A DNA stretch of 64,000 nt from Comamonas sp. BIGb0152 (GTDB lineage Bacteria > Pseudomonadota > Gammaproteobacteria > Burkholderiales > Burkholderiaceae_C). The position numbers and the translations under genes are program-made. Positions 11,607-64,000 of the stretch are shown piece by piece. The stretch is from positions 248,001 to 312,000 of the forward strand of contig NZ_JANUDY010000005.1 in the NCBI RefSeq assembly GCF_024809975.1. Reading direction: 5' to 3'. Every line of letters starts with the position of its first letter. The first letter of the stretch is position 1. The notes under the pieces were generated by a model. It was not told the DNA's origin. It searched no databases and saw only the letters and a program-made list of their open reading frames with translations.

Positions 11607-11678
11607 CCAAACTGATATTTTCTGAGCAGCCAAAATAATTTAACCTAGGTTGTTGGTACACACATTCGAAGAGATTTT

Positions 11679-11867
11679 TCATATTCTTCGTAATTTTCGA
11701 ATGGTGTTCCGGGTCCATAATGCGATCTGGCCTTTGCTATCGGTCAAGGCCAGCGGAGTGCCCAGGTGGTCGCACTGGCAGTAGTGGGTGGCGATGCGGG
11801 CATGGACTTGCTGTAACCGCAGCTGCTCACGCATGCCTTGCAGCACTTGGGCGGTTTCGCTCATGGA
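11679..11867 (-). pseudogene. Rhs fragment A (displaced copy of the rhs 3' region)
   Basis: About 150 bases (11718-11867) match 13034-13200 of the intact rhs gene, covering residues from ETAQ and LQGMREQL to DHLGTPLALTDSKGQIA. The copy carries small differences and an internal deletion near its start (QVLQG where the parent has QRGAQLLQG). After GQIA the frame runs into unrelated sequence and stops. It has neither the RHS core nor a recognisable toxin tip. It lies directly upstream of a four-helix membrane protein gene, so fragment plus gene look like a decayed cassette. Confidence 0.85.
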
Positions 11868-11932
11868 AGTTATATCGCGATATTTTCTATAATGTAAAAT
11901 GTATTTTATAAATATATATCAATTGGTGATGT

Positions 11933-12397
11933 TTATTTATTTTTTAATTTTAATAAAAGTATTTTCCCAAGTGAGTATATGCCGCAACTTAAAAATAATA
12001 TTATTAAGGATGGCATTACGCGAGAAAAAATCACCAAAGCCTCAAATGTTAATAATTTAAAAAACGTCATGAAATTTAAGGTGTTTATTTCTTTTAAGAG
12101 GGTGATGATGTTGATCCAGATGAATTTAGGAATAACAAATGTAGGAGGGAAATAGAAAGTGGCGAAAATATAAGCTATTGTACTAGCGTAGGTTTTTGCT
12201 ATCTTCTTTGATGAATAAATTGTTATACTGAGACCCAAAAGGAAATTTGATCCCGCTATTACTAGGCGAACTATTTCATCGTTGATAGATATAGTGGTTG
12301 CAATAGTTGTTGAAATCATGGCGGTGCATAAAATCAATGACGCTAATGAAGAGATAAATATTATTTTATAATGTGGCATTCGTATAATACGCATCAA
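11933..12397 (-). CDS. Membrane protein, predicted immunity to the Rhs C-terminal toxin
   Basis: 154 residues, very AT-rich. It starts 5 bp after the rhs stop codon, so translation is probably coupled, which is the classical toxin-immunity arrangement. About four hydrophobic helices are visible (IIFISSLASLILCTAMI, LVIAGSNFLLGLSITIY, AYIFATFYFPPTFVIP and VMPSLIILFLSCGIYSLG), with a basic tail KLKNK. An inner-membrane immunity protein suggests that the toxin acts at or across the membrane. Starts at MMRIIRM or MPHYK are both possible. No family was recognised. Confidence 0.75.
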   Translation of the reverse strand: MMRIIRMPHYKIIFISSLASLILCTAMISTTIATTISINDEIVRLVIAGSNFLLGLSITIYSSKKIAKTYASTIAYIFATFYFPPTFVIPKFIWINIITLLKEINTLNFMTFFKLLTFEALVIFSRVMPSLIILFLSCGIYSLGKILLLKLKNK

Positions 12398-12402
12398 TTA
12401 AT

Positions 12403-15400
12403 TTATTTGAAAAAATCAAATGTAGGATGTGTTGATTGGAGTAAATCAACGCAATTTCTTGAGGGCGATGTGTAGTAGCCATAAGAAATTTGAGAATTGA
12501 CAATAAATCCAGATTGAATATTCTCAACCGCCGCCGATATTGGGCCGTCTGCATAGATCGATAATTTCTTGGCTGCTAAAGCTAATTTAGCTGCTTCTGG
12601 TGTCAACTGATCATTTTCCACGCGATCAGAAATTTCTTTTTCTGCCTTGCACATGAGGATATCCTGCTCTTTTTTAATCTCTCTACCTTTTTCTACATTT
12701 TCTTTCCAACTCAGTATGTCTTGCGCCTTATCCCACCAGTCCTTCGTTTTTCCGAGGTCTGGCCCTCTTGCAGGAGGCTGTGTTGGGTCAAGCCCTAAAG
12801 GATCTATCCACATCATGGGATTGAGTGGGTATTTTGATTTGTTTGTTCCTCCCGCCAACCCAATCGGATCCTGCGTGATATACCCCCCAACCTGCGGGTC
12901 GTAATACCGGTGCCGGTTGTAATACAGCCCCGTCTCCAGGTCATGGATCTGCCCCGGTAAACGCATCGGCTGCCCAATCCCATGCGGGTCGTACTCATCG
13001 AGCACATTGCCCCAGGGGTCTAGCCTGGCGGCCCATGCGATCTGGCCTTTGCTATCGGTCAAAGCCAGCGGAGTGCCCAGGTGGTCGCAGTGGTAGTAGT
13101 GGGTGGCGATGCGGGCGTGGGCTTGCTGTTGCTGTCGCTGCAGCTGCTCGCGCATGCCTTGCAGCAGCTGGGCGCCGCGTTGAGCGGTCTCGCCCATGAA
13201 TGCGGAGGAAGCTGGCATGGCAGTGCTTTGCAGCGCCTGCTGCATGTTCTGCTCGGCCTGCTCTTGCATGCTGGCGGGCATGGCGCTGAGCATGGATTGC
13301 ATCAGGGCCAGCGCTTGGGTGTTGCTGTCGTCAGCTTCACTGTTACCACCGCTTCCACTGTCTCCATCGCTGCTGTCCCCTCCGGCCATCCCCGCCTGCA
13401 GCGCGCGCAGCAGCAGGGGCGGCTGTTGGTGCTCGCTGAGCTGGGCGGTGGTGCTGAGCCGCACCAGCGGGGTAAAGCTGCCGTCTTCGTAGATGGTGTG
13501 TTCAATGTGCCGGCAAGGTTGACCATCGGGGCTATCGGGGCCGGGGCGCAGGTGCTCGGTGTGGATGAGCCGCTCTCCGTCCCAGCCGTAGTAGCTGGTG
13601 TGTTCGGCCGCTGCGGTACTGCTTTTTTTGCTCAGGCGGCGGCCCAGCGCGTCGTAGGTGTAGCGCAGCTGCTGCGCTGGCCTGCCATCGCTGTAGGCGG
13701 TGTGGACCTCGATGAGTTGGTGGTTGCCGTCGTAGCGCAGTTCTTGGCGGCTGCGCTGGGGCTGGCCTTGCGCGTTGGTGGCTAGCGATTGCAGCTGCTC
13801 GATGCGCCTGCCGAATTCGTCGTAGCGCCATACGCAGTCACTGCTGTAGCCGATGCGGTTGTCGTCCCATTGTTTGACTGGGCCACGTTGGTAGGCGGCC
13901 AGGTGGCCCAGGCCGAGCAGGTTAAAGCTTTCTTGCCGCCAGTGGGCGTGCACCTGGGCGGCCCATTGCTGGGAGTCACTGCCGGGGTTGTCTGCGCTGG
14001 GGGCGGGGCCGGGCAAGCGGTTGCCGGCGGGGTCCGTGCGCCACTCTTGCATGCTGGTGGGGCGCAGGCCTTCTGCGGATGCGCGCAGGCGACCGGCGGT
14101 GTCATAGGCATAGCGCAGCAGTTGTGCGGGCTGGCCGCCGGCCCCCGCTTGCTCGATGTCGCTGAGCTGGCCCAGCGCATCGTAGCGGTAGCGTCTGCCG
14201 GCGATCTGGCCGACCAGGTGCAAAGCCAGGGGCGGGGCGGCGGGGTCTGCCGATGTGGGTAGCTGCAGGCCCTGGGTGGCCGTGGTGGACAGGCGGCCCA
14301 GGCTGTCCCATTGGCGTTGTACCTGGATGGGGGTGGGGCCGTCCGCCTGGCCGGGGGCACCCAGGCTGCGCCGGGTTTCTCGGTGCAAGGCGTCGCGCTC
14401 CATGTCGACGAGGGTATTGCCGTTGTGCTGCAGCCCATGCACATGGCCTGCGCCATACCGCTGCCAGGCAATGGTGCCCAGGCCTTGTAGATGGCTGTGC
14501 TGGCGGTTGCCCAAGGCGTCCAGCCCGTGGCTGATGCGGTGTTCGTACTCCAGCGCGGCCGAGGGCGCGGGGTGGCCGTTGCTATCGCTGCGGTAGAGCT
14601 GTTGCACTTCGCCGGTGATGCGGCCCAAGGCGTCGCGCTGCAAGCTAATTTGGCTTTGCAGCTGGGCGGGCAGAGGCTGGCCGGCATCTTCAGCCGATAC
14701 GGGCTGCAGCCACACGCTGGCAGCGGTCAGTTGCCCGGCAGCGTTCCACTGGTAGTGGTGGGTTTGCGCGGGTGCATGCGCGGTGGCGGGCCATTGGCGT
14801 TGGGCCAATCTGGCGCTGCTGTCCCAGGTGTAGCGGGTGGTGCTTTGGTGCATGGCATTGCCGTCGCTGCTGGTGCGCAACTGGCCGGCTGCATCCCACT
14901 GGTAGCGCTGCAGCCGTTGGTCAAAGCCTTCTTCCAGCACCAGGCGGTCTTGTGTGTCCCAGGCAAAGCGGCTTTGGGCGCCGTTCTCGTTCACCAGCCG
15001 GGTCAGGCGACCAGCGCTGTCGTATTCCAGGCTTATGCTCAGGCCCCCCTGGCTGCGTTGCAGCAGCCGGCCCCAGAGGTCATAACTCAGATGAATGCTG
15101 TGGTCTGCAGGGCCTGCCTGGTCAGCATGGCCCGCGGATGGGGGGCTGTCCGTCTTTTGGGCGGGGTCGATGCGTACCAGGTGGCCGGCTTCGTTGTAGT
15201 GGTAGCGCTCTACCAAAGGGCCTTGCCACTCGATGGCAACCAGGCGGCCCTGTTCATCTCGCAGGTAGCGTTCTGGCACGCCCCTGGCGTCGGTGGTTTC
15301 TGCCAGCGCGCCGTAGCGGTCGTAGCGGTAGTGGCTGGTATGGCCGGAGCAGTCGGTGTAGGACAGCAGTTGGCCCGCGTTGCTCCAGCTCAGGCGCTTG

Positions 15401-49884: not shown

Positions 49885-52137
49885 TTATGCCGCTGCGGTA
49901 TCGCACTCGGGCCACAGTGCCAAGCCGCCCGCCAGGCTGAAGGCCTGCGGGTGGCCCAGGCGGCGCAGCGCACGGGCGGCCTGGGCGCTGCGGTTGCCGC
50001 TGCGGCAGTAAAACACCACGGGCGTATCGGCCGCCAGGGCCAGCCACTGGGGCAGCGCATTGAGCAGGCCCGACAGTGGCACGGCCTGGGCCAGGTCTCC
50101 GCCTTCCAGCCCGCGCGCCGTGCCCAGTTGCTGCTCATAGGGCTCGCGCACATCCACCAGCAAGGCGGCGCTGCCGGCCTGCTGCAGCGCCTGGGCGCGG
50201 GCCAGGGGCATCTCTACACAGCTGGGTGCGGCAGCGGCATCTACCCGCGCGCCGCAGGCCATGGTTTGGTAGGCGGTGGGGGCCATGTCTTGCTCCAGGC
50301 TGGCCTTGGCGGCGGCAAAGGCGGCGGCATCCAGCTGGCCCTGCAGCACACCGGCCAGCAGCGGCTGGGCGGCCGATTCCACCGCCAGGGTGCAGGCAAA
50401 GTGGTTGTCGTAGTCATGGCCGGGCAGCAGCAAGGTTTGCGGGCCCACGGTTGCTTCCAACAGGCGCAGGCTGCCCGCATAGGCCAGCGGCGCGCTCTGG
50501 GCAAAATCACTGCGGCCCAGCGCACCGGGCAGCACGGTATCGCCCACCAGGGCCAGCTGCAGCTGCGCGCCTGCATGCAGCAGGTAGGCGGTCGAATCGG
50601 CGGTGTGGCCGGGCAGCGCCAGGCGGCTCAAACGGTAGGCGCCCAGGTCCATCTGCGTGGCGCCTGCGGGCCAGCCCAGCGCATCCACCGCGCCAGCTGC
50701 TTGCAGCGCAGCGGGCACGGCGGCGCGCAGCTCGGCGGCCGATGAGGCGTGGTCGCCATGGCTGTGCGTATCGAGCACGGCAGCCAGCGTGAAACCCCGG
50801 CAGCGCACCCACTGCGCCAGGCGCTCGACCAGCTCAGGCAGCGGATCGACCACCACGCAGCGCTGGCTGGCGGCATCGGCCAGCAGGTAGCAGCAGGCGC
50901 CGTCGACGACAAAGCGGGTCAGCAACGGGGCGGTGCCATGGGCGGTGTCTTGCGGGGCTTCGACCAGGCAGTGCGTGCGCAGCGCAGCGCCGCAGGCGCG
51001 GATGCGGCTGCAGGCCTCGTCGATCATCGCGCTGGCATCGGCGGCGCCAAAGGACATGCGCACCGCTGCGGCCGTTTGCCAGGCCGGCAGGCCCATGGCT
51101 TCGAGCACATAGCTGGGCTGCGCCTTGCTGGCGCTGCAGGCCGAGCCGCCGCTGACGCGCAGGCCGGCGGCGTCAAACAGGTCGAGCAGCAGCTTGGATT
51201 CCAGGCCGGGCACCGCAAAGTTCAGGGTGGTGGGCAGGCACAGCGCAGCGGGCGCGTTGAACACCACGTTGCCAAAGGCATCGCACAGCGCCGATGCAAG
51301 CCGCTGGCGGTGGTCGGCCAAGGTGGCTGCACTGGCAAAGGTGGTGCCATCTTGCAGCGCGTGCAGCACGGCGCCCAGCGCGGCAATGCCGGCCATGTTC
51401 TCGGTGCCGGCGCGCAGTGCGCCTTCTTGCCCGCCGCCCGCCAGCAGCGGGGTAAACGGCGCGCCTTCGCGCACATAGAGCATGCCCACGCCTTTGGGGG
51501 CATACAGCTTGTGGCCGGAAAACGGCGCGTAGTCGATGCCGCGTTCAACGGCGTTGAGCGCCAGCTTGCCCAGCGCCTGCACGCTATCCACCAGCCACAG
51601 TGCGGGGCTGCCGCGCAGCGCAGCGGCAATGCCGTCGAGGTCGCTGATCACTCCCGTCTCGTTGTTGGCGGCCATCGTGCAGACCAGGCCGGCCGATGGC
51701 GCCTGCGTGCGCAGCCAGGCCAGGTCATGGCGGCCATCGTTGCCGACGGGGATGGCGGCGATCGGCAGGTGCAGGCCGAGCACCGCGTTCCAGTGCTTGA
51801 GGGCTTCGGGCACGGCCTTGTGTTCGGTAGCACCGTAGAGCAGCTGCAGCGCGCTGCGGTCACCCGCATCCCGGCGCTGGCGCAGGGCGTTGAGCGCTGA
51901 CAGCACGGCGGTCTGGATACCTTCGGTCGCGCCGCTGGTGAACAGCAGCTGGCCACTGGGCACGCCCAGCACCTGGCGGGCGGCGGCGCGCGCCTCGTCC
52001 AGCAGCGCGCGGGCCTGGAGGCCGCTGCCATGGATGCTGCTGGGGTTGCCATAGGCATCGGCCATCACCGCCAGGGCGGCGGCGCGGGCTTGGGGGAGAA
52101 CGGGGGTGGTGGCGTTGGCGTCGAGGTAGATTTCCAT
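49885..52137 (-). CDS. Cysteine desulfurase - persulfide dioxygenase-like MBL - rhodanese fusion
   Basis: 750 residues with three enzyme domains. About 1-380 is an IscS/NifS-type PLP cysteine desulfurase (PLP Lys in SGHKLYAPKG near 209, sulfur-carrying Cys in SGGSACSASK near 333). About 395-640 is a metallo-beta-lactamase fold with ETHE1/persulfide dioxygenase features: DTHSHGDHAS near 459, PGHTADS, GDTVLPGALGRSDF and LLPGHDYDNH. About 655-745 is a rhodanese with active Cys in FYCRSGNRSAQ near 710. The chain would take sulfur from cysteine, oxidise the persulfide to sulfite and transfer sulfane sulfur. ATG 52137 is chosen; the upstream frame is antisense to the regulator. Confidence 0.9.
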   Translation of the reverse strand: MEIYLDANATTPVLPQARAAALAVMADAYGNPSSIHGSGLQARALLDEARAAARQVLGVPSGQLLFTSGATEGIQTAVLSALNALRQRRDAGDRSALQLLYGATEHKAVPEALKHWNAVLGLHLPIAAIPVGNDGRHDLAWLRTQAPSAGLVCTMAANNETGVISDLDGIAAALRGSPALWLVDSVQALGKLALNAVERGIDYAPFSGHKLYAPKGVGMLYVREGAPFTPLLAGGGQEGALRAGTENMAGIAALGAVLHALQDGTTFASAATLADHRQRLASALCDAFGNVVFNAPAALCLPTTLNFAVPGLESKLLLDLFDAAGLRVSGGSACSASKAQPSYVLEAMGLPAWQTAAAVRMSFGAADASAMIDEACSRIRACGAALRTHCLVEAPQDTAHGTAPLLTRFVVDGACCYLLADAASQRCVVVDPLPELVERLAQWVRCRGFTLAAVLDTHSHGDHASSAAELRAAVPAALQAAGAVDALGWPAGATQMDLGAYRLSRLALPGHTADSTAYLLHAGAQLQLALVGDTVLPGALGRSDFAQSAPLAYAGSLRLLEATVGPQTLLLPGHDYDNHFACTLAVESAAQPLLAGVLQGQLDAAAFAAAKASLEQDMAPTAYQTMACGARVDAAAAPSCVEMPLARAQALQQAGSAALLVDVREPYEQQLGTARGLEGGDLAQAVPLSGLLNALPQWLALAADTPVVFYCRSGNRSAQAARALRRLGHPQAFSLAGGLALWPECDTAAA

Positions 52138-52231
52138 AGCCCAATTGTCGAGCGCGGACGGGGGAATACAGCTGCAAACTTCGCCAGTTATCGGAGAATA
52201 TTGGAGTTCATTTCTAAAAATAGGTAAAAAA
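52138..52231. promoter_or_regulatory. Divergent promoter/operator region of the sulfur locus
   Basis: 94 bases separate the fusion enzyme from the DecR-like regulator. The AT-rich part 52190-52230 (with GAATATTGGAG at 52196) probably holds the regulator binding site and both promoters. No precise site can be defined by eye. Confidence 0.45.
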
Positions 52232-52699
52232 ATGAAATTGGATTCCATTGACCGCAAGCTGCTGGAGTTGCTGCAGGCCGATGCCGAAACCCAGGTCGCC
52301 GAGCTGGCGGCCCAGGTCGGCCTGTCCGCCACGCCCTGCTGGCGCCGCATCCAGCGGCTCAAGGAGGCCGGGGTCATCAAGCGCCAGGTGGCCTTGGTGG
52401 ACCGCGACAAGGTGAATGTGGGCGTGACCGTGTTTGTCGCCGTACGCACCAGCACGCACAGCCAGGAATGGTTTGAGCGCTTCCGCGCAGCCGTAGCGGC
52501 TATCGCCGAGGTGGTCGAGTTCTACCGCATGAGCGGCGAGGTGGATTACCTGCTACGGGTGGTAGTGCCTGATATCGCCGCCTATGACAAGGTGTACAAG
52601 CGCCTGATTGCCGATACCCAGTTGTTGGATGTGTCGTCCAGCTTTGCGATGGAGGAGCTGAAATTCACCACCGCCTTGCCGCTGTCCTATATTCCATAA
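52232..52699 (+). CDS. Lrp/AsnC-family regulator, DecR/CyuR-like
   Basis: 155 residues. The N-terminal helix-turn-helix (IDRKLLELLQADAETQVAEL, then SATPCWRRIQRLKEAG) is followed by a RAM effector domain. The line of SSEWF-like SQEWFERFR, FYRMSGEVDYLLRV, YDKVYKRL and DVSSSFAMEELKFTTALPL closely resembles the E. coli cysteine-detoxification regulator DecR/CyuR (YbaO), as I recall its sequence. AGGTAA precedes ATG 52232. It is divergent from the sulfur fusion enzyme, so it probably induces it when cysteine is high. Confidence 0.85.
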   Translation: MKLDSIDRKLLELLQADAETQVAELAAQVGLSATPCWRRIQRLKEAGVIKRQVALVDRDKVNVGVTVFVAVRTSTHSQEWFERFRAAVAAIAEVVEFYRMSGEVDYLLRVVVPDIAAYDKVYKRLIADTQLLDVSSSFAMEELKFTTALPLSYIP

Positions 52700-56263: not shown

Positions 56264-57727
56264 TTAGACGGCGAGTGCCAGGCCGTCCTTGCGCTTGTCG
56301 GAGGCGCCACGCAGCTGGCCATTGGGCAGGCGCCAAATCCACTGCGCGCCGCCGAAGTCGCTGCGCCCGCCCAGCTCACCTTCGCCACTGGGCTCGCGGT
56401 AGCCCTGGGCCCGCAGCGCGGCGGTAATCGCGGGCGGCATGCCGGCTTCCACCGCCAGCACCCGGCCGCCTTCCAGGCGCCAGCGCGGCTGGTCCAGTGC
56501 CGCCTGCGGTGCCTCGCCGCCTGCCAGCATGCGGCATAGCAGCTGCACCTGGCCTTGGGGCTGCATGGCGCCGCCGACCACGCCAAACACAGCAAGGAAT
56601 TGGCCATCGCGCGTCGCCGCGCCCGGCACCACCGTGTGGTAGGGGCGTTTGCCTGGCGCCGGCCCATTGATATGGCCGGGCTGCGAAAAGCCATGGCCCC
56701 GGTTTTGCAGCACAAAGCCGCCCTCGGCCACGCCGATGCCCGAGCCAAAGCGCTTGAACACGCTGCTCATCAGGCTGATGGCCAGGCCGTCGGCATCCAC
56801 CACGGTGGTGCAGACGGTGTTGCCGGCTGGGTCGGCCACGGTTTGCTGGGCATGGGCCATGGCCGCTTCCATGGCCTGCACCAGGGCCACCTGGGTGGCA
56901 GCGCTGGCCATGTCGATGGCCTGGTCTTGCATGGCGGCCAGCGCGTGCAGCACAGCCACGCCATGGGTGTTGGGCGGGCATTCGTAGATGGTGGCACCGC
57001 GAAATGGCGTGCTCACCGGCGTGCAGAAGTCGCCCCGGTGGGCGCTGAAATCGGCGGTGCCCAACACGCCACCCGCTGCCTGCACCGCAGCCGCACAGGC
57101 GGCAGGGATGGCGCCGGCATAAAAGGCCTGTGGCCCCTTCGCGGCCACGGCCTGCAGCAAGCGGGCCAGCGCCGGGTTGTCAAAGCGCTCGCCAGCGCGG
57201 GGTGGGGCATCGGCGCGGTACAGGGCAGCGCTGGCGGCATTGCGGGCAATCACCGGCTGGAACAGCGCCCACTCGCGCGCAGCAACCGGGGCCACGGCAA
57301 AGCCCTGGCCGGCGGCTTGCACGGCGGCATCAAACAGCTGTGCCCAGGGCCGCTTGCCAAAGCGCTGGTGCAGATCCCACCAGCCTTGCACGACACCGGG
57401 GGTGGTGACGGACAGCGGGTGGCGCTCGGGGATGCGGTGCTGGGGCAGGGCCTCGACCAGCGTGGCCGTCAAGCCTTGGGGCGCGCGGCCCGTGCCGTTG
57501 TAGGCCAGCGGTGCCCGGCCTGGCGGCACCAGCATGGCCAGCAGGTCGCCGCCCACGCCAGTGGCCATGGGCTCAACCACACCCAGCACGGCATCAGCGG
57601 CAATGGCGGCATCGACGGCGGAACCCCCTTGCTGCAGCTGGGCCTGCGCAGCGGCCGCCGCCAAGGGGTGGCCGGTGGCCACCATGGCCCCCTGGCCCAG
57701 CACGCCCAAGGCATTTGTCTGCTGCAT
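56264..57727 (-). CDS. Gamma-glutamyltransferase-family protein
   Basis: 487 residues of the Ntn-hydrolase GGT family, normally matured by autocleavage before a catalytic Thr. The probable nucleophile is the first Thr of NTVCTTVVDADG (about 302), followed by MSSVFKRFGSGIGV and GGGM-like VVGGAMQPQGQVQ. The usual TTHxS block is altered: a Cys replaces the His. No signal peptide is evident, so it is probably cytoplasmic. It could be a hydrolase of gamma-glutamyl or other amides. ATG 57727 is one base after the permease stop, so the two are cotranscribed. Confidence 0.85.
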   Translation of the reverse strand: MQQTNALGVLGQGAMVATGHPLAAAAAQAQLQQGGSAVDAAIAADAVLGVVEPMATGVGGDLLAMLVPPGRAPLAYNGTGRAPQGLTATLVEALPQHRIPERHPLSVTTPGVVQGWWDLHQRFGKRPWAQLFDAAVQAAGQGFAVAPVAAREWALFQPVIARNAASAALYRADAPPRAGERFDNPALARLLQAVAAKGPQAFYAGAIPAACAAAVQAAGGVLGTADFSAHRGDFCTPVSTPFRGATIYECPPNTHGVAVLHALAAMQDQAIDMASAATQVALVQAMEAAMAHAQQTVADPAGNTVCTTVVDADGLAISLMSSVFKRFGSGIGVAEGGFVLQNRGHGFSQPGHINGPAPGKRPYHTVVPGAATRDGQFLAVFGVVGGAMQPQGQVQLLCRMLAGGEAPQAALDQPRWRLEGGRVLAVEAGMPPAITAALRAQGYREPSGEGELGGRSDFGGAQWIWRLPNGQLRGASDKRKDGLALAV

Positions 57728-57728
57728 A

Positions 57729-59267
57729 TCAGCTGCCCCACAGCGCCACGGCGGTGAAGACGGCGGCAATCAGGCCCAGCACCACCGGTACCAACAAGGC
57801 CCGGGCCAGCTCCAGCACATTGACCCGGGCAAAGCCTGCGACGGCTATCAGCGAGGACCAGGCGATCAAGGTGCCGCCGCCCGTCCACACCGCGCCCATT
57901 TGGCCCAGCGCGGCCAGGGCCGACACATCCATGCCCGAGGCCGGGCCCAGCGCGCCCGACAAGGTGCCGGTCAGCGGCAGGCCGGCAAAGCCGGAGCCGT
58001 CGATGCCGGTGATCATGCCCATCAGCAGCACACCAAACGACACCAGCAGCTGGCTGTCGGGAATCAGGTGCTGGCTGGCCTTGACCAGCTCGAACAGCAG
58101 GTCAGGCACGGGCTGGCCGGCGGCAATGCCCAGGATGGGGCCGGCGGTCTCGTGCGAGCCGATGAAAAAGAAGCCGGCAATCGGCAGCACCGCGCCCATG
58201 GCCTTGAAGGCGAAGACAAAGCCATCGGTGACATGGTCGGCGGCGCCATCGAGCATCTTGCGAAAGCCCCGAGCGGCCGTGGTGGCCCAGATCATCAGCA
58301 GTGCCGCGACGCCGCCAATCAGCATGGCGGCATCGCCGCCTTTGAGTTCGGGCACGGCGGTGGTGAACTTGGGCGCCACCATCACCAAAATCACCACCAA
58401 AAAGGCCAGCGGCGTGACGACGGCAAACAGCTTGGAGGCCGATGCCAGCGGCTGGGTTTTGCGCAGCTCGGCTTCCAGCTCGGAGTTGGTGCCCAGGTCG
58501 CTGTCATGGGCCGTGCCCTTGGCGATCTCGGCCTTGTCAAAGGCGCCTGCGCCCTCGATCTGTGCGTTGATGCCCACGGGGTTCAGCTCCCAGCGCTCCA
58601 GCAGCGCGTTGTCGCTGGGCACGATGAGCTTGCGCACCTTGAAGTACGACAGGAACAGCGCAATCATGCCGACCACCCAGGACAGCAGCAGCGCCTTGTC
58701 GGCCACCGCCACGGCACTGATGCCGCCAGCGGCCTTGGCGCTGATGCCCGGCGCCACACCGATCACATAGTCCGACGACAGCGCCATGCCCTGGCCGGCA
58801 ATCGCAATCGCCATGGCACCCGCGATGGGCGGCAGGCCCGCCGCAATGGCTGCGGGCAGCAGCACGGCCGCTACCAGTGGAACGGCGGGGGTGGGCCAGA
58901 AAAACAGCGAGATCAGGTAGGTGACCAGCGCCAGAATGAAATAGGCCACATGGCCGTTTTTCATCACCGCGCGAAAGGGCTTGACCATGCGGATGTCCGA
59001 GCCCAGGTCCTTGAGCGCATTGAGCAGGGCCGTCATCAGCGCAATGATCAGGAAGATGTTGAACAGCTCCTTGGCCGCCACCATGCTGGCACTGAATATG
59101 CTTCCTATCCCGGTGATGGCGCTGCCGCTCCAGGCGAAGGCGACGACGACGGTGGCCAGTATCGATGGCACCACCACATTGGCACGGAAGGCCATGGTCA
59201 GAATGATGACCAGCACCCCGGCAAGGTAGGCCCAGTGCGCTGGGCCTATAGAGACTGACGGATCCAT
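57729..59267 (-). CDS. Multi-helix permease, ion-transporter type, unassigned
   Basis: 512 residues with about 12 membrane helices (for example WAYLAGVLVIILTMAF, LFNIFLIIALMTALLNAL and VAYFILALVTYLISLFFWPTPAVPLVA). A long hydrophilic loop (about 225-280) separates two halves, each with re-entrant Gly/Ser-rich segments (GQGMALSSDYVIGVAPG and GITGIDGSGFAGLPLTG). The layout recalls the DcuC/GntP/citrate-Mg ion-transporter superfamily, but I cannot name the family. Cotranscribed with the GGT-like gene, so it may import or export the GGT substrate. Confidence 0.75.
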   Translation of the reverse strand: MDPSVSIGPAHWAYLAGVLVIILTMAFRANVVVPSILATVVVAFAWSGSAITGIGSIFSASMVAAKELFNIFLIIALMTALLNALKDLGSDIRMVKPFRAVMKNGHVAYFILALVTYLISLFFWPTPAVPLVAAVLLPAAIAAGLPPIAGAMAIAIAGQGMALSSDYVIGVAPGISAKAAGGISAVAVADKALLLSWVVGMIALFLSYFKVRKLIVPSDNALLERWELNPVGINAQIEGAGAFDKAEIAKGTAHDSDLGTNSELEAELRKTQPLASASKLFAVVTPLAFLVVILVMVAPKFTTAVPELKGGDAAMLIGGVAALLMIWATTAARGFRKMLDGAADHVTDGFVFAFKAMGAVLPIAGFFFIGSHETAGPILGIAAGQPVPDLLFELVKASQHLIPDSQLLVSFGVLLMGMITGIDGSGFAGLPLTGTLSGALGPASGMDVSALAALGQMGAVWTGGGTLIAWSSLIAVAGFARVNVLELARALLVPVVLGLIAAVFTAVALWGS

Positions 59268-59301
59268 CGTGGCTACTCCTTGGTATGATTAAACAGCCAA
59301 T

Positions 59302-59311
59302 TTGTATACTA
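59302..59311. promoter_or_regulatory. GTATAC operator-like site 1
   Basis: TTGTATACTA, 35 bp upstream of the permease start. One of several GTATAC-centred sites in the intergenic regions of this cluster; a probable target of the GntR regulator. Confidence 0.55.
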
Positions 59312-59403
59312 AATACAATAAATGAAAAAACCATCAGGGAATACCAGAAATATTGCATTGCAACATGTGATTGATCCGGGTTAAATTGAGGAAAACAGCT
59401 TTT

Positions 59404-59413
59404 TCGTATACAA
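59404..59413. promoter_or_regulatory. GTATAC operator-like site 2
   Basis: TCGTATACAA in the divergent region between the permease and the small-protein gene. A degenerate relative (TTTGTACACTGGATACAC, 59563-59580) lies just ahead of the small-protein gene. Confidence 0.55.
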
Positions 59414-59614
59414 AAATACGGGTGGTTGTGCCGATACAAGCCAACTGGCTAGCTTGTTTTAGTGCATTTCAGCGGTGCGACAGCTTGAGAATTTTTCTGA
59501 ATTTCGAGGCTAAACAAAGGCTTGGATAGCGAAGGGTTATGGATCCAGATCAAAACCCTTGTTTTGTACACTGGATACACTAGGGTAATTACTAGGTTAT
59601 CCAGGAGCTATTCC

Positions 59615-59845
59615 ATGAAAAACACGCTGATCCAAACCGTTGCCGCCCAAGAGGCGGATCTGCTGGCCTTGCGCAAGCCCCGCCAAGCCCTGTTGCCCGC
59701 GTCGCTGGGCTGGCTTTCGTCGATAGAGAACGCTTTTGTGCGCTGGCAGGCCCAGCGCCTGGCCGAGATGTCCCCGGGGCGCCTGTGGGCCCAGGCGATG
59801 CAAGACACGCGCTCGCTGGCTGAGATCCGCCGTGCTGGCCGCTGA
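59615..59845 (+). CDS. Small protein of unknown function
   Basis: 76 residues. ATG 59615 has a good CCAGGAG nine bases upstream, so it is probably a real gene despite its size. The sequence is soluble, with a basic start and an amphipathic segment (SSIENAFVRWQAQRLAEMSPGR) and the end LAEIRRAGR. The end slightly recalls DUF1127-type small proteins, but too weakly to assign. It is bracketed by GTATAC-like sites and lies ahead of the gntR gene. Confidence 0.65.
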   Translation: MKNTLIQTVAAQEADLLALRKPRQALLPASLGWLSSIENAFVRWQAQRLAEMSPGRLWAQAMQDTRSLAEIRRAGR

Positions 59846-59864
59846 GCGCTGAGTCTTCAGATTT

Positions 59865-59874
59865 TTGTATACAA
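59865..59874. promoter_or_regulatory. GTATAC operator-like site 3
   Basis: The perfect palindrome TTGTATACAA, about 120 bp ahead of the gntR start, consistent with autoregulation. Confidence 0.6.
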
Positions 59875-59992
59875 GGCAAGGCCCAGAGGCTGTAAACCTT
59901 TGCCGGGCATGTAAACTGGTGCGACCTTGGGCGGCTCTTTGGTTGTCGACACAGCGCCCGGGGCAAGCAACGTACCGAACGGATCGACTTTC

Positions 59993-60646
59993 ATGCCCAT
60001 TGCCAACGGAGACAAAAAAACAGGACTGAACCACTCGCCGCTGACCCAGCAGCTGGTGGAGGCCTTGCGCGAGAAGATCATGTCTGGCGAGCTCGCATCC
60101 GGCGAGCGGCTGGTCGAAGAGCGTCTGTCCGAGGAGTTTTCGGTATCGCGCATGCCCGTGCGCGAGGCCTTGCGCCAGCTCGCTTCCAGCGGCCTGGTGA
60201 TCATTGAGCCACGGCGCGGTGCCTCGGTCGCCAAGTTCCACGGCGACTTGCTGCGCGAGCTGGTCGAGGTGCGCGCCACCTTGGAGGCCCTCAATGCCCG
60301 CCTGGCCGCCAAGCGCCACGACCCCGAGCAGATCGCTGCGCTGGAGGCCTTGCTGGCCGAAGGCACCAAGAACGCCCACACCGGCGATGGCGATGTGCTG
60401 GCCGTGCTCAACCAGAAGTTCCACCTGGCGCTGGGCAAGATCGCCGCCAACTCGGTGCTGCAAGAGGTGATGCTGTCCTTGCGCGACCGCACCGAGGTGC
60501 TGTTTGCACCGCGCAGCCAGGCGCGTGCGCCCCAGAACTGGGAAGAGCATGCCGCCATCCTGCGTGCGGTGATCAAGGGCGATCCTGAATTGGCCGGCCT
60601 GCTGGCCGCGCGCCATATCTACAACGCGGCCGGCATCGAGCCCTGA
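59993..60646 (+). CDS. GntR-family (FCD) transcriptional regulator
   Basis: 217 residues. The winged helix-turn-helix (LREKIMSGELASGERLVEE, then FSVSRMPVREALRQLASSGL) is followed by an all-helical FCD effector domain with metal-ligand-type residues (ELVEVRATLEALNARLAA, NQKFHLALGKIAAN and HAAILRAVIKGD). ATG 59993 gives the usual length; the frame opens at 59927. FCD regulators often bind short palindromes; the repeated GTATAC sites around this gene are candidates. The effector is probably a carboxylic acid or amino acid. Confidence 0.88.
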   Translation: MPIANGDKKTGLNHSPLTQQLVEALREKIMSGELASGERLVEERLSEEFSVSRMPVREALRQLASSGLVIIEPRRGASVAKFHGDLLRELVEVRATLEALNARLAAKRHDPEQIAALEALLAEGTKNAHTGDGDVLAVLNQKFHLALGKIAANSVLQEVMLSLRDRTEVLFAPRSQARAPQNWEEHAAILRAVIKGDPELAGLLAARHIYNAAGIEP

Positions 60647-60665
60647 GCGCTGGGCTCCCGCTTTT
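60638..60665 (+). terminator. Weak terminator-like hairpin after gntR
   Basis: GAGCCC and GGGCTC pair around the gntR stop codon with an 8-base loop, followed by CCGCTTTT. The T-run is short, so efficiency is doubtful. Confidence 0.4.
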
Positions 60666-60710
60666 CGCGCGGCACTTCCCCAGCCGGGCGCATCGCCCGG
60701 ATGCGCTCGT

Positions 60711-61637
60711 TCAGGCCTTGCGCGCCAGCTGGTTCTGGTAAGCCACCCCTGCCAGCGCAATATCTTCCAGCCCCACCCCCACGGCCTTGTACAGCCGGAT
60801 GCCCGGCTGCGGGCTGACGGTATACCGGCCGCTGACGATATCCCCCAGCTCCACCAGCTTGCCGGCCAGCGACAGGCCGGGGTCGGCCAGCACCAGGTCG
60901 CCTGCTTCGCTGGTCGCCTGCTTTTTCCATTCCACCGCAATCAGCTGGGCGCGCGCCAGCAGGGCATCGTCCAACTCGCGGGTATGGGGCAGGCTGGAGC
61001 CAATGGCGGCCACAAAAGCATGGGGTGCTACATGCTCGCCGTTGAACAGTGGCTCCTTGGCGCGTGAGGCGGTGACGATGATGTCCGCCTCGCCCACGCC
61101 CTGGGTGTGCGCCACCCGGCGGATCTGCGCTGCGGGCAGGCCGGTCAGCTGCGCCAGGCGCGCTTCCAGCCCTTCGTGCGCATAGGGGTCAAACACATCG
61201 ATGCGCTGCAGCCCGAAGTGCTGCACCAACTGCTGCGCATGGGCCAGGCCCTGCACGCCAGCGCCGCACAGAAAAAGATGGCGTGCATTGGCCGGCGCCA
61301 GGTGCTTTGCTACCAGCACCGTGGTGGCAGCGGTGCGCAGGCGCGTGATGGCATTGGCATCCAAGGTGGCCAGCGGCGCGCCGGTGGCGGTGGAAAACAG
61401 CAGGATGACAAAGTTGAACTGGCCGGCAATAGTGGTGTAGACCTTGGCGCCAGTCACCCCCTGCGCGGGGATGACGGCCCCCAGCGTGGAGAGCTTGACG
61501 CCGCCGGCATCGGTGCGCTCGCGCGCTTGCATGGCCGCTTCGCCCGCGCCAAAGGCGGCAAAGGCCTCGCGCATGGCTTGCAGGGCTTGGTCGGTGGACA
61601 CCAGGGTGTCCACCATGGCATCGGTGATGTGCAGCAT
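60711..61637 (-). CDS. Ornithine cyclodeaminase/mu-crystallin-family protein
   Basis: 308 residues. The NAD(P)-binding motif FLCGAGVQGLAHAQQL (about 130) and flanking segments (FNFVILLFSTATGAPLATLDANAITRLRTAATTVL and ADIIVTASRAKEPLF, in two stretches) match the family, which includes ornithine cyclodeaminase, alanine dehydrogenase and imino-acid reductases. Start ATG 61637 (MLHITDAMVDTL); the longer frame upstream is a shadow of the TSUP and ferredoxin genes. It is the last gene of a five-gene minus-strand operon. The activity could be an imine reduction or amino-acid deamination; substrate unknown. Confidence 0.88.
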   Translation of the reverse strand: MLHITDAMVDTLVSTDQALQAMREAFAAFGAGEAAMQARERTDAGGVKLSTLGAVIPAQGVTGAKVYTTIAGQFNFVILLFSTATGAPLATLDANAITRLRTAATTVLVAKHLAPANARHLFLCGAGVQGLAHAQQLVQHFGLQRIDVFDPYAHEGLEARLAQLTGLPAAQIRRVAHTQGVGEADIIVTASRAKEPLFNGEHVAPHAFVAAIGSSLPHTRELDDALLARAQLIAVEWKKQATSEAGDLVLADPGLSLAGKLVELGDIVSGRYTVSPQPGIRLYKAVGVGLEDIALAGVAYQNQLARKA

Positions 61638-61663
61638 GGGGTGTGGTGGGGTGAGGTTGGAAA

Positions 61664-62410
61664 TCAGAGCCAGACGCGCAGCAGGATGATGCAGGCGCTG
61701 ACGGCGGCGGTGCCCAGCAGCCAGCGGCGGATGGTGGCTTTGGAGATATGGCGGGCCAGGCGGTTGGAGGCCAGAAAGCCCCCCAGCATCCAGGGCAGCA
61801 GCACCAGACTGAGCAGCCACTGCCCGCTGCCCATGCGGCCCACCCAGGCAAGGGCACTGAGCGAGACGATGGTGCCGGCAAAGAACACCACGCCTAAGGT
61901 GGAGCGCATGGTGGCTGGTGCCAGGTGCTGCATCGCAATCGCAAACGGCGGGCCACCTGCGGCGGTGATGGTGCCCATGATGCCGCTGGCCACGCCGGCA
62001 ATCGACAGGTTGGTGGTGCTGGGGGCCACCCGCCAGCCCAGGGTGCTGAGGCAGACGGCGGCCAAGATCAGCACGGCAAACAGAATGGACAGCGCATGGG
62101 TGCTGAACAGCACCAGCAGGCCGGTGGCGGCAAAGGTGCCGATGACGCGGCCCACCAAGGTTGCGGCAGCGACCTGGCGGTTGAGCGCATCGCGCTCGCG
62201 CAGATAGGCCAGCAAGGCCAGCGGCGCGCCCACGGCCAGTAGCGGGCCGGGCACCAGCTCGGGAAAAAAGATCGCCGCCAGCGGCGCGCAAAACATCGCA
62301 TAGCCCAGGCCGCCCACGCCCTGCATGGCCGCGCCGGTCAGCACCATCAGCCCCATGGCCAGGTAGCGGCCCCAGGCCAAGTGCTCGGTGAGTGCGGTCC
62401 AGGCCATCAT
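61664..62410 (-). CDS. TSUP (TauE/SafE)-family membrane transporter
   Basis: 248 residues with about eight membrane helices. Two related halves carry the family motifs GGLGYAMFCAPLAAIFFPE and GTITAAGGPPFAIAMQHL. TSUP proteins export or import sulfite, sulfoacetate or other organic anions. It overlaps the upstream ferredoxin gene by 4 bp and lies 26 bp ahead of the cyclodeaminase-like gene. The substrate is probably an acid product or sulfur anion of the pathway. Confidence 0.88.
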   Translation of the reverse strand: MMAWTALTEHLAWGRYLAMGLMVLTGAAMQGVGGLGYAMFCAPLAAIFFPELVPGPLLAVGAPLALLAYLRERDALNRQVAAATLVGRVIGTFAATGLLVLFSTHALSILFAVLILAAVCLSTLGWRVAPSTTNLSIAGVASGIMGTITAAGGPPFAIAMQHLAPATMRSTLGVVFFAGTIVSLSALAWVGRMGSGQWLLSLVLLPWMLGGFLASNRLARHISKATIRRWLLGTAAVSACIILLRVWL

Positions 62411-62697
62411 GGGCGGGGGAGCCAGCTGACCTTGATGTCGCCGTTGACAAAGGTCTGGCAGGCCAGGCGGTGGCCGGCGGCGAACTCTTCCTCGCTGAAA
62501 TGCTTGCGCTCCTTGGCCTTGATGGCATCGGTGTGGGCCAGGCCTTCCTCAATGCGGCATTTGCAGGTGCCGCACAGGCCGCCGCCGCATTTGAAAGGGA
62601 TGCCCCCTTTCTCGCGCAGCGAGACGCGCAGCAGGTTGCTGTTTTCCGGGGCCTCGACGGTTTTGTTGTCGTTGCTGACAAAGGTGATGGTGGGCAT
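62407..62697 (-). CDS. 2Fe-2S ferredoxin (plant type), first copy
   Basis: 96 residues. Cluster ligands lie in CGGGLCGTCKC (C-x4-C-x2-C) and in LACQTF near residue 80. A cytoplasmic one-electron carrier. The start MPTITFVSN parallels the second ferredoxin start MPQITFHKN, suggesting duplication. It overlaps the TSUP gene by 4 bp. Probably gives electrons to an oxygenase of the cluster. Confidence 0.9.
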   Translation of the reverse strand: MPTITFVSNDNKTVEAPENSNLLRVSLREKGGIPFKCGGGLCGTCKCRIEEGLAHTDAIKAKERKHFSEEEFAAGHRLACQTFVNGDIKVSWLPRP

Positions 62698-62707
62698 AAA
62701 GGGGCAA

Positions 62708-63025
62708 TCAGGCGGCGGGTGGTGCGCTGAGGGGCGCTGCTGTCAAGGTGGAATCCAGCGCGCCGAACTGGCACAGGTGCTGCAGCTCGCTGCGGGCTTG
62801 CTCCAGCGATGCAAAACGCTCCAGAAACTTGGAGGGCACCTGGTTGGTGGTGCCGCCGGGGCCTTCCTCGATCACCTGCACCTTGGTCTCGCGCAGCAGC
62901 TCACCCACCGCAAACCGGGCGAGCAGGCGACCGCAAAAGTGGTAGTCCCAGGCTTCTAGCAGGCGGATATCGGCGTTGGGCTGCGTGTGGTACTGGCCGG
63001 GCTTGCTGGTCAAAACTACGAACAT
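62708..63025 (-). CDS. Small conserved-looking protein between two ferredoxins, unknown function
   Basis: 105 residues. It starts MFVVLTSKPGQYHTQPNA, with strands and an ADIRLLEAWDYHFCGRLL segment, and has an Ala/Pro-rich tail. A single Cys and several aromatic residues are present. No domain was recognised. It lies 9 bp after the second ferredoxin and 10 bp before the first, so it is part of the operon. It may be an accessory subunit of the electron-transfer or oxygenase complex, by position only. Confidence 0.75.
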   Translation of the reverse strand: MFVVLTSKPGQYHTQPNADIRLLEAWDYHFCGRLLARFAVGELLRETKVQVIEEGPGGTTNQVPSKFLERFASLEQARSELQHLCQFGALDSTLTAAPLSAPPAA

Positions 63026-63034
63026 GGGCTTTCC

Positions 63035-63391
63035 TTATGCAGCGGGGGTGGCGGGCGTGGTGCCTGCAGCGCTGGCCGTGTGGGCGGTGCTGGCGGGCAG
63101 CGGCACTTGCGCCAGCTCCAGGTCATGCTCGGGCCAGAGCTGGCACACCAGGCGAAAGCCTTCGTCCAGGTGCGTGCCCAGCTGCTTTTTCTCTTTCCAG
63201 TTGGGTGCCGGCAGGTGCTCGGCCCCCGCCAGCACCTTGCAGGCGCAGGTGGCGCATTTGCCCATGCCGCATTGGTAGGCCAGGTGAGGAAAGGGGAACT
63301 GCTTGATCCCCGCGCGCACCACCAGGTTGGCGCCGGTCTTGACCTCGCCTTGGAAGGTCTGGCCATTCTTGTGAAAGGTGATCTGGGGCAT
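63035..63391 (-). CDS. 2Fe-2S ferredoxin (plant type), second copy
   Basis: 118 residues. Ligands lie in CGMGKCATCACKV (C-x4-C-x2-C) and in LVCQLW near residue 82. A C-terminal Ala/Thr/Pro tail (about 95-118) is unusual for a ferredoxin. ATG 63391 has GAGGAA upstream. It is the first gene of the minus-strand operon, directly behind the tandem GTATAC sites. Confidence 0.9.
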   Translation of the reverse strand: MPQITFHKNGQTFQGEVKTGANLVVRAGIKQFPFPHLAYQCGMGKCATCACKVLAGAEHLPAPNWKEKKQLGTHLDEGFRLVCQLWPEHDLELAQVPLPASTAHTASAAGTTPATPAA

Positions 63392-63412
63392 GGGTTCCTC
63401 CGCATTGCAATT

Positions 63413-63429
63413 ACGTATACTGTATACAA
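63413..63429. promoter_or_regulatory. Tandem GTATAC operator-like sites 4 and 5
   Basis: Two GTATAC cores at 63415 and 63422 are separated by a single base (ACGTATACTGTATACAA). They lie 22 bp ahead of the ferredoxin operon, a position suited to repression. Confidence 0.65.
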
Positions 63430-63615
63430 CTGGATGTTGTGGATGTACTAGGGATAACGTGAGGATGAGGGAGTTTGGCTTGGGTTGCAGCGCATAGATA
63501 TTGAGGAATATCAGGAGCCTGTGACTCTTGAGCGGCCAGGATGGTGTTTGCGATTTGATGGGGCTAGGGGTAAGCACTGAGTTGGAATGGGGTGTGAAAA
63601 CATTGACCTCGTATT

Positions 63616-63625
63616 CTGTATACAG
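63616..63625. promoter_or_regulatory. GTATAC operator-like site 6
   Basis: The palindrome CTGTATACAG is flanked by GTATT and TATTC (63611-63629). It lies about 70 bp ahead of the PqqC-like gene. Confidence 0.6.
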
Positions 63626-63693
63626 TATTCTAATTCTGTCGCTTGGCTAGTTATGACTTGGCGACGACCCCAACATCTTCAGAGGAACCCGCC

Positions 63694-64000
63694 ATGACCA
63701 GCACATTGATGAACCGCGACGACTTCCGCGCTGCGCTTGAAAATGCCATCAAGGGCAAGAGCGCCAACAAGGCCCCTTTCAGCGTGGCCTGGGCCACGGG
63801 CCGTTTGAGCCGTGAGCACCTGGCGCGCTGGGCTGAGAACCACTACCACTATGTGGGCCCGTTTGCCGACTACCTGGGCTACCTCTATGCCCGCACCCCT
63901 GACCATATGACCGAGGCCAAGGACTTTTTGCTGGCCAATATGTATGAGGAAGAGATCGGCGGCGACCGCCATACCGATCTGCTGATCCGCTTTGCCGAGG
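63694..64000 (+). CDS. PqqC-like / haem-oxygenase-fold putative metalloenzyme, 3' end beyond the window
   Basis: The first 102 residues are visible, starting at ATG 63694 with AGAGGAAC upstream. WAENHYHYVGPFADYLGYLY and NMYEEEIGGDRHTDLL are helices with Glu/His residues of the kind that bind metal in PqqC/TenA-like haem-oxygenase-fold enzymes (including diiron oxidases that act on amino or fatty acids). The family is usually about 230 residues, so more than half is outside. Divergent from the ferredoxin operon with shared operator-like sites, it is the likely oxygenase served by the two ferredoxins. Confidence 0.8.
   Translation, partial: MTSTLMNRDDFRAALENAIKGKSANKAPFSVAWATGRLSREHLARWAENHYHYVGPFADYLGYLYARTPDHMTEAKDFLLANMYEEEIGGDRHTDLLIRFAE

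What the first reader, a model, noticed from the sequence alone, without database searches (positions are those of the whole stretch)
56264..64000. Possible undescribed oxidative pathway: PqqC-like enzyme, two ferredoxins, cyclodeaminase-like, GGT-like, TSUP and a permease under one regulator
The sequence shows nine genes plus a small protein around one GntR-type regulator. A haem-oxygenase-fold (PqqC-like) protein is divergent from two plant-type 2Fe-2S ferredoxins, a small unknown protein, a TSUP transporter and an ornithine-cyclodeaminase-family enzyme. A GGT-like hydrolase and a permease are transcribed separately but have a similar operator-like site. Diiron enzymes of the haem-oxygenase fold are known to oxidise amino acids and fatty acids and need an electron donor. 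I infer that a nitrogen-containing, possibly gamma-glutamylated, compound is imported, hydrolysed, oxidised and reduced or deaminated. I know of no named pathway with this set.
Basis: partly seen in the sequence, partly recalled or inferred. Interest (0 to 1): 0.8.

Follow-up and report, generated by a model that had tools for sequence, protein, structure and literature searches.

The report
Undescribed multicomponent diiron oxygenase pathway
A block of genes shared by many bacteria appears to encode an unstudied breakdown pathway built around an iron-dependent, oxygen-using enzyme with its own electron-supply proteins; what compound it breaks down is still unknown.

Summary
The gene set is real, and larger than the window shows. 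The window (Comamonas, near C. koreensis) stops inside the key gene. Past 64000 lie the rest of the haem-oxygenase-fold protein (HDO), an aldehyde dehydrogenase, an HbpS-like protein, a BenC-type NADH/flavin/2Fe-2S reductase and an SDR.

In 80 relative loci (alpha- and betaproteobacteria), HDO, both ferredoxins, the small protein, HbpS and the GntR regulator are each in at least 78, all six in 77, in many gene orders. A palindrome, GTATACNGTATAC, lies upstream of HDO in 75 of 80 (reversed control 0), and also before permease, TSUP, cyclodeaminase and, elsewhere, amidase genes: one local regulon. All six HDO metal ligands are invariant (93 of 93); the self-sacrificing residues of pABA synthases are absent in all.

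Best reading: a catabolic, multicomponent HDO oxygenase, with a small beta-rich protein that may be an effector. A 2026 review says HDOs studied so far need no protein effector; MboAB is proposed as the first dedicated HDO-redox pair. The gamma-glutamyl idea is not supported: the GGT-like enzyme lacks the glutamyl-binding residues and is in 9 of 80 loci. The substrate stays unknown.

The parts
56264..57727 (-). GGT-superfamily Ntn amidohydrolase (487 aa), probable operon with the permease
   Evidence: PF01019 356 bits; below the NCBIfam GGT cutoff, 257 of 358 bits; catalytic Thr kept, gamma-Glu-binding residues not
57729..59267 (-). PERM: permease, 512 aa, no Pfam family; ion-transporter-superfamily fold by model
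   Evidence: no family; AF2 pLDDT 81.5; Foldseek best hits MleN, TRAP-M, NaS1 at E 1e-4 to 1e-3, NaDC/INDY just above; in 74 of 80 loci
59304..59316 (.). operator-like site upstream of PERM (2 mismatches)
59566..59578 (.). weak operator-like site (2 mismatches) upstream of a 76-aa ORF
   Evidence: not reported by the weight-matrix scan
59975..60646 (+). GntR/FCD regulator
   Evidence: PF07729, PF00392; in 79 of 80 loci
60711..61676 (-). OCD/mu-crystallin-family imine reductase or amino-acid dehydrogenase
   Evidence: PF02423; closest solved relative 3hdj, 'probable ornithine cyclodeaminase'; in 39 of 80 loci
61664..62410 (-). TSUP/TauE-type transporter, likely exporter (direction inferred)
   Evidence: PF01925; in 56 of 80 loci
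62407..62697 (-). FDX2, [2Fe-2S] ferredoxin
   Evidence: PF00111; four cluster Cys in 89 of 89 aligned
62708..63025 (-). SMALL: 105-aa signature protein, beta-rich with one helix; candidate effector or coupling protein
   Evidence: no Pfam; AF2 pLDDT 91.9; no PDB fold match at E 0.001; found in 6 of 300 order genomes, all six with HDO
63035..63391 (-). FDX1, [2Fe-2S] ferredoxin
   Evidence: PF00111; four cluster Cys in 90 of 90 aligned
63415..63427 (.). exact operator GTATACTGTATAC (FDX1 side)
63611..63630 (.). two overlapping 1-mismatch operators (HDO side)
63694..64000 (+). HDO, haem-oxygenase-like diiron oxygenase; start only, runs on to L002:9431 (431 bases past the window)
   Evidence: PF14518 127 bits; six ligands invariant. 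Downstream outside the window: ALDH L002:9522-10979, HbpS-like 11006-11482, BenC-like reductase 11532-12560, SDR 12578-13357

Best explanation
It is a locally regulated catabolic regulon whose core is a soluble multicomponent oxygenase of the haem-oxygenase-like dimetal (HDO) superfamily. Inferred order: a small nitrogen-containing carboxylate enters through PERM (in other lineages also through an MFS or an SsuA-type ABC importer). In some lineages it is first freed from an amide or ester by a variable hydrolase (GGT-like, amidase, alpha/beta hydrolase). NADH reduces the BenC-like reductase, which feeds the two ferredoxins, which reduce the HDO diiron site; O2 then oxidises the substrate at a C-H or C-N position, giving an aldehyde and an imine or amine. 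SMALL docks to the HDO or a ferredoxin as coupling/effector protein. ALDH oxidises the aldehyde, OCD (or an aspartate-dehydrogenase-like enzyme elsewhere) handles the imine/amino acid, TSUP exports an anionic by-product, and HbpS may help load or repair the iron site. GntR acts at GTATACNGTATAC sites until an inducer binds. Shown: gene set, conservation, shared operator, ligands, component types. Inferred: catalysis, effector role of SMALL, GntR binding, direction of every transport and redox step, substrate class.
For: Content kept while order is shuffled: HDO 80, HbpS 79, GntR 79, FDX1/SMALL/FDX2 78, ALDH 75, PERM 74, RED 67, TSUP 56, OCD 39 of 80 loci, in 25 gene orders, some of them due to contig ends or missed gene calls. 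Operator with at most one mismatch within 400 bp upstream of HDO in 75 of 80 (reversed control 0 of 80); 141 such sites in 1.58 Mb against 0 for the control. In the weight-matrix scan of 98 loci no site was flagged inside a called gene, and sites also precede PERM, TSUP, OCD and, in Cupriavidus, Paraburkholderia and L009, the amidase. E86, H93, E149, H180, D184, H187 in 93 of 93 HDOs. The reductase has FAD, NAD and 2Fe-2S domains, the reductase type reported for MboB, the dedicated partner of the HDO MboA (PMC13185094, passages). SMALL occurs only in HDO-bearing genomes in the sample searched (6 of 300).
Against: No substrate, expression or activity data. RED is missing in all 11 alphaproteobacterial loci of the 80, so a general reductase must serve there, though two alphaproteobacterial genomes outside the 80 do have it (L103, L137). 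G180 (HDO 78% identical) has no SMALL between its ferredoxins and no operator (L016), and Belnapia and Crenalkalicoccus lack the operator. A 44-47% identical HDO in G533 has, of the cluster genes, only HbpS and GntR beside it, with no operator. ALDH is missing in five loci, one of them on a 6.9-kb contig. Genome-wide, 1-mismatch operator hits are only twice the control (21 against 10 in 8 genomes). The GntR-operator link is by position only. The 80 loci are the best of 490 relatives, chosen by HDO similarity.
Confidence: 0.6

Rival explanations
1. Desulfonation pathway: the HDO system cleaves a C-S bond of an organosulfonate, giving aldehyde (to ALDH) and sulfite, which TSUP exports; uptake by an SsuA/TauA-like ABC importer or PERM.
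For: TSUP in 56 of 80 loci; an operator-preceded ABC importer whose binding protein is nearest to SsuA/TauA in the four Variovorax loci.
Against: SsuA-family score 81 bits, cutoff 163, and such proteins bind many ligands (my knowledge); TSUP absent in 24 of 80. Sulfite-handling genes were not searched for. HDO desulfonation is without precedent known to me.
Confidence: 0.12
2. One reading: a gamma-glutamylated amine is imported, hydrolysed by GGT, oxidised and deaminated.
For: GGT next to PERM on the same strand in 9 of the 9 loci counted as GGT-bearing; GGT plus peptide-type ABC importer genes (recognised by eye) in G1018 and G668.
Against: R114, D433, S462, S463 (E. coli numbering, recalled) are replaced; GGT absent in 71 of 80 at the cutoff used; below the NCBIfam cutoff.
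Confidence: 0.06
3. Biosynthetic or cofactor role (PQQ or pABA type, or a secondary metabolite), as for the characterised HDOs in the parts of the review read.
For: HDO is nearest to CADD/PabS and then PqqC among solved proteins.
Against: Sacrificial Tyr, second Tyr and Lys are Ser, Trp, Gln in 93 of 93; CADD and PqqC NCBIfam scores 96 of 200 and 46 of 240; neighbours are transporters, ALDH and hydrolases.
Confidence: 0.08
4. Detoxification: N-oxygenation or removal of a toxic amine or amino acid from plants or microbes, not carbon supply.
For: Known HDOs N-oxygenate amino-acid-type substrates (PMC13108848, parts 1-2 of 6); patchy distribution, 10 of 399 order genomes with a close HDO; TSUP may be an exporter.
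Against: ALDH, OCD, PERM and hydrolases look like assimilation.
Confidence: 0.14

Closest known systems
MboA/MboB (mangotoxin HDO and its redox partner)
   Same: HDO with 3 His/3 carboxylate site and a dedicated NAD(P)H/flavin/2Fe-2S reductase (PMC13185094 passages)
   Different: MboAB is biosynthetic; no separate ferredoxins or small partner appear in the passages read; here the cluster looks catabolic
CADD / NePabS self-sacrificing pABA synthases
   Same: closest solved relatives by sequence, E 1e-18 to 4e-16; same six metal-ligand positions as 9pj4
   Different: Tyr25, Tyr41 and Lys159 of NePabS correspond to Ser, Trp, Gln
Bacterial multicomponent monooxygenases (e.g. sMMO) - works like
   Same: diiron oxygenase + reductase with 2Fe-2S + possible small effector
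   Different: oxygenase belongs to the haem-oxygenase-fold family, not the ferritin-like one; SMALL matches no known family
BenC/AntC-type dioxygenase reductases
   Same: domain order Fer2-FAD-NAD, best NCBIfam hit BenC 217 bits
   Different: partner is an HDO; score below the BenC cutoff of 430
GGT superfamily (2nlz, 2i3o group)
   Same: catalytic Thr region and KRxxHT-type motif; best-scoring solved relatives
   Different: not a canonical gamma-glutamyl transpeptidase
Iminosuccinate reductase BhcD / ketimine reductases (OCD family)
   Same: family match
   Different: no equivalog cutoff reached, BhcD 92 of 500 bits

Membership tests
HDO superfamily | Haem-oxygenase-like sequence family | tested here: met
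   PF14518 126.9 bits, cutoff 28.9
HDO superfamily | 3 His / 3 carboxylate ligand set | tested here: met
   E86 H93 E149 H180 D184 H187 in 93 of 93; all six aligned with identical residues of 9pj4
HDO superfamily | binds a dimetal site and activates O2 | not testable with these tools
   needs protein chemistry
Self-sacrificing pABA synthase (CADD/PabS) | sacrificial Tyr, second essential Tyr, donor Lys | tested here: not met
   Ser30, Trp46, Gln159 in 93 of 93 (residue roles from PMC11965152 passages)
Self-sacrificing pABA synthase (CADD/PabS) | NCBIfam TIGR04305 cutoff | tested here: not met
   96 of 200 bits
PqqC | NCBIfam TIGR02111 cutoff | tested here: not met
   46 of 240 bits
HDO with dedicated redox partner (MboAB type) | flavin/NAD/2Fe-2S reductase in the same cluster | tested here: met
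   RED in 67 of 80 loci
HDO with dedicated redox partner (MboAB type) | reductase needed for HDO turnover | not testable with these tools
   -
Bacterial multicomponent monooxygenase | oxygenase of the ferritin-like diiron family | tested here: not met
   HDO family instead
Bacterial multicomponent monooxygenase | MmoB-type effector | tested here: not met
   SMALL matches no Pfam family (best E 0.04 over 28 members) and no PDB fold at E 0.001
gamma-Glutamyltransferase | catalytic N-terminal Thr of the small subunit | tested here: met
   T304 aligns with the E. coli position, which is Ala in the chain 2e0w shown (numbering recalled)
gamma-Glutamyltransferase | gamma-Glu-binding R114, D433, S462, S463 (recalled) | tested here: not met
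   T79, G346, H364, T365 by the HMMER alignment to 2e0w; all four conserved in the seven sequences aligned
gamma-Glutamyltransferase | NCBIfam TIGR00066 cutoff | tested here: not met
   257 of 358 bits
OCD/mu-crystallin family | PF02423 | tested here: met
   136.7 bits, cutoff 24
OCD/mu-crystallin family | any single named activity | tested here: inconclusive
   best equivalog PRK06141 125 of 322 bits
alpha-Ketoglutaric semialdehyde dehydrogenase | NCBIfam NF042993 cutoff | tested here: not met
   555 of 770 bits; ALDH family itself met

The most novel reading that the evidence does not exclude
The first catabolic HDO and the first HDO that works as a true multicomponent oxygenase: NADH reductase, two dedicated ferredoxins and a protein effector of unknown fold relationship (SMALL), a convergent counterpart of the methane/toluene monooxygenases, opening a pathway for a plant- or soil-derived nitrogenous acid.
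Probability: 0.45. Interest if true: 0.82.

Novelty: new variant of a known kind. Interest (0 to 1): 0.68.

Why it matters
The review read in part (PMC13108848, parts 1-2 of 6) counts about a dozen functionally validated HDOs, links the superfamily to natural-product biosynthesis, and says those studied need no protein effector; MboAB may be the first dedicated HDO-redox pair (PMC13185094, passages). A widespread cluster that pairs an HDO with two ferredoxins, a reductase and a signature small protein makes the open questions of electron supply and O2 gating in HDOs directly testable, and points to an unassigned catabolic pathway in common genera. It also gives context for unnamed families (PERM, SMALL) and for the solved OCD protein 3hdj, deposited only as a probable cyclodeaminase.

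Tried and rejected
Self-sacrificing pABA synthase and PqqC: rejected by residues and scores. Gamma-glutamyl specificity: rejected for the GGT-like enzyme. Distant regulon members by the operator: 8 genomes, 21 forward hits against 10 for the reversed control. Eight of the hit loci were inspected: L110 lies in the G098 cluster, L116 near the amidase/MFS genes of G325 (site 572 bases from the amidase start as called), and the other six lie near genes that look unrelated, so the regulon appears local. Naming the permease by sequence: no Pfam or PDB match; DUF969 matched one of 24 members at 0.004 and was not followed. SMALL: no family, no PDB fold. Dipicolinate oxygenase (recalled idea): the search gave nothing usable. 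A root-exudate transcriptome paper (PMC5789663, term search only) had no matching text. More distant HDOs in L139-L142 (about 26-37% identity) sit in other gene sets. No paper describing this gene set was recognised in the ten searches; the library holds open-licence PMC papers only. Mirror-tree correlations between components range from 0.18 to 0.78 (HDO-HbpS highest); no control was made and three unnamed-genome loci duplicate named ones (L011/L036, L013/L046, L014/L056, equal contig lengths), so little weight is placed on them. Rows left out of counts: a 38% GGT hit in L081 and a 79-aa GGT fragment in L068 fall below the cutoffs.


Full report
What is there. The window is contig stretch G000:C5:248001-312000 of a Comamonas close to C. 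koreensis, judged from Comamonas loci L020-L022 whose cluster proteins are 87-99% identical. The window ends inside the PqqC-like gene, so I fetched the next stretch (L002; L002 position = window position minus 55000). The complete protein has 245 residues (L002:8694-9431). Behind it on the same strand lie an aldehyde dehydrogenase (9522-10979), an HbpS-like protein (11006-11482), a 342-aa reductase with Fer2, FAD and NAD domains whose best NCBIfam model is BenC (11532-12560), and an SDR (12578-13357). The next gene is a ProQ homologue, found beside the cluster only in Comamonas (4 of 80 loci); the same holds for GlcF on the other side (4 of 80). These two mark the ends of the cluster.

Is it more than chance? 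A scan of named genomes found 490 relatives of the HDO and kept the best 80. Among those 80 loci, 11 with shortened flanks, HDO is in 80, HbpS 79, GntR 79, FDX1, SMALL and FDX2 78 each, ALDH 75, PERM 74, RED 67, TSUP 56, OCD 39, amidase and MFS 21, SDR 13, GGT 9 (tblastn with a per-family identity cutoff of 36-70%). From the missing lists of that call, all six core genes are present in 77 of 80. The loci carry 18 labels, five of them MAGs or family level, including Comamonas, Cupriavidus, Achromobacter, Bordetella, Variovorax, Paraburkholderia, Bradyrhizobium and Belnapia. Gene order differs (25 orders, some due to contig ends or missed gene calls) while content stays. The cluster is patchy: in 399 genomes of the order, 13 have an HDO match at E 1e-20, of which 10, own genome included, are at least 78% identical; two sampled genomes of the same genus have none at that threshold. 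In 398 genomes of the phylum 5 match at E 1e-25, three of them already seen, in 347 of the order of G668 2, in 240 of its class 7, five of them at 32-37% identity. Bias: the 80 loci were picked by HDO similarity and many are from Achromobacter and Cupriavidus.

Regulation. A 13-bp palindrome GTATACNGTATAC lies within 400 bp upstream of HDO in 75 of 80 loci with at most one mismatch and 78 of 80 with at most two; the reversed pattern gives 0 of 80 in both cases. In the 80 loci (1.58 Mb) there are 141 such sites against 0 for the control. The weight-matrix scan of 98 loci flagged no site inside a called gene and placed sites before HDO, FDX1, PERM, TSUP and OCD, before the amidase in 20 of the 21 amidase-bearing loci of the 80, and before the SsuA-like ABC genes of the four Variovorax loci. 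Belnapia and Crenalkalicoccus lack it, and so do L016 (G180), L102 (G533) and the distant HDO loci L017 and L018. Genome-wide searches in 8 genomes show that beyond the cluster such sites are near background: 21 hits against 10 for the control, with apparently unrelated genes beside six of the eight inspected; one of the other two lies near an amidase/MFS pair in G325. So co-regulation is well supported by sequence, for a local regulon; that the GntR protein binds the site is inferred from constant neighbourhood.

The oxygenase. Pfam Haem_oxygenas_2, 127 bits. Closest solved proteins are pABA synthases (E 1e-18 to 4e-16), then PqqC. The six ligands E86, H93, E149, H180, D184, H187 are identical in 93 of 93 cluster HDOs (at least three of these are duplicate loci) and align with identical residues of 9pj4. 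The residues that NePabS sacrifices or needs (Tyr25, Tyr41, Lys159; PMC11965152 passages) correspond to Ser30, Trp46, Gln159 in 93 of 93. The call does not name the organism of 9pj4; an offset of 21 puts Tyr, Tyr and Lys of 9pj4 at exactly these three NePabS positions. So it is an HDO by sequence but not a self-sacrificing pABA synthase, nor PqqC by score. It is the most conserved component: mean identity between differently labelled loci 0.87, against 0.80 HbpS, 0.69 FDX1, 0.68 FDX2, 0.49 SMALL (HDO is favoured because it was the search query).

Electron supply and the small protein. Both ferredoxins keep their four cluster cysteines in 90 of 90 and 89 of 89 aligned copies. RED keeps its Fer2 cysteines in at least 97% of its 73 aligned copies. 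It is missing from the 11 alphaproteobacterial loci of the 80 but present in L103 and L137. SMALL (97-116 aa in the loci read) has no Pfam family in 28 members, no PDB sequence match better than E 0.46, a confident model (pLDDT 91.9, beta strands with one helix) and no PDB fold match at E 0.001. A profile search finds it in 6 of 300 genomes of the order, all six of which carry the HDO. It is absent in L016/G180, whose HDO is 78% identical, so it is not universal. [quoted passage not shown] MboAB is proposed as the first dedicated HDO-redox partner pair (PMC13185094, passages).

The other enzymes. The GGT-like protein keeps the catalytic threonine but has T79, G346, H364, T365 where E. coli GGT has its gamma-glutamyl-binding R114, D433, S462, S463 (E. 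coli roles and numbering recalled; alignment) and scores best with 2nlz and 2i3o. It lies beside PERM on the same strand in 9 of 9 loci counted as having it; two further alphaproteobacterial clusters carry a GGT with peptide-type ABC importer genes, recognised by eye (G1018: GGT 66% identical; G668: 32%). Elsewhere there is an amidase with an MFS carrier (21 of 80; families), an alpha/beta hydrolase (Caballeronia plasmid) or a hydrolase fused to FDX2 (L046, by eye). I infer an amide- or ester-bound precursor. OCD is in 39 of 80; in one rhizobial MAG an aspartate-dehydrogenase-family gene (above its NCBIfam cutoff) stands inside the cluster (L082), and a gene of similar look lies some kilobases from the G098 cluster (by eye); this hints at imine/amino-acid chemistry but does not fix it. 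A choline-dehydrogenase-like GMC gene accompanies the cluster in 7 of 7 Bradyrhizobium loci (family). PERM has the ion-transporter-superfamily fold (MleN, TRAP-M, NaS1, NaDC/INDY; TM 0.4-0.5), suggesting an anionic substrate.

Mechanism and verdict. The best account is a catabolic multicomponent HDO oxygenase system. The architecture, conservation and shared operator are shown; catalysis, the effector role of SMALL, the iron-loading role of HbpS, the direction of TSUP and the substrate are inference. The main rivals are detoxification, desulfonation and a biosynthetic role. Ten literature searches returned no paper that I could recognise as describing this gene set; the library is open-licence PMC only, so a description in a subscription journal is possible.

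Noticed in passing
window 49885-52455 (-): One frame carries class-V aminotransferase (cysteine-desulfurase type), metallo-beta-lactamase and rhodanese domains in a row, a possible sulfur-trafficking fusion next to an AsnC/Lrp regulator.
   Followed up: partly
window 59615-59845 (+): 76-aa ORF without Pfam family between PERM and GntR, behind a weak (2-mismatch) operator; a similar 81-aa ORF lies at the same place in Bordetella genomosp. 2 (L091:5999-6244).
   Followed up: partly
L137:8735-9454 and L137:17623-18342 (G1018): Two HDO copies that look identical over 239 aa lie in opposite orientation in one cluster; C. basilensis (L034) also has two HDO genes.
   Followed up: no
L046:7696-9024 (-): FDX2 is fused to what looks like an alpha/beta hydrolase in a Burkholderiales MAG.
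   Followed up: no
L102:10305-12150 (G533): A 44-47% identical HDO with only HbpS and GntR of the cluster genes, near a Rieske-like protein and SDR genes: possibly an older pairing of HDO with HbpS.
   Followed up: partly
L142:3197-3763, 8031-8741 and 8874-9554 (G1205): Three further HDO-family genes (26-32% identity) near what looks like a molybdenum-hydroxylase gene set.
   Followed up: no
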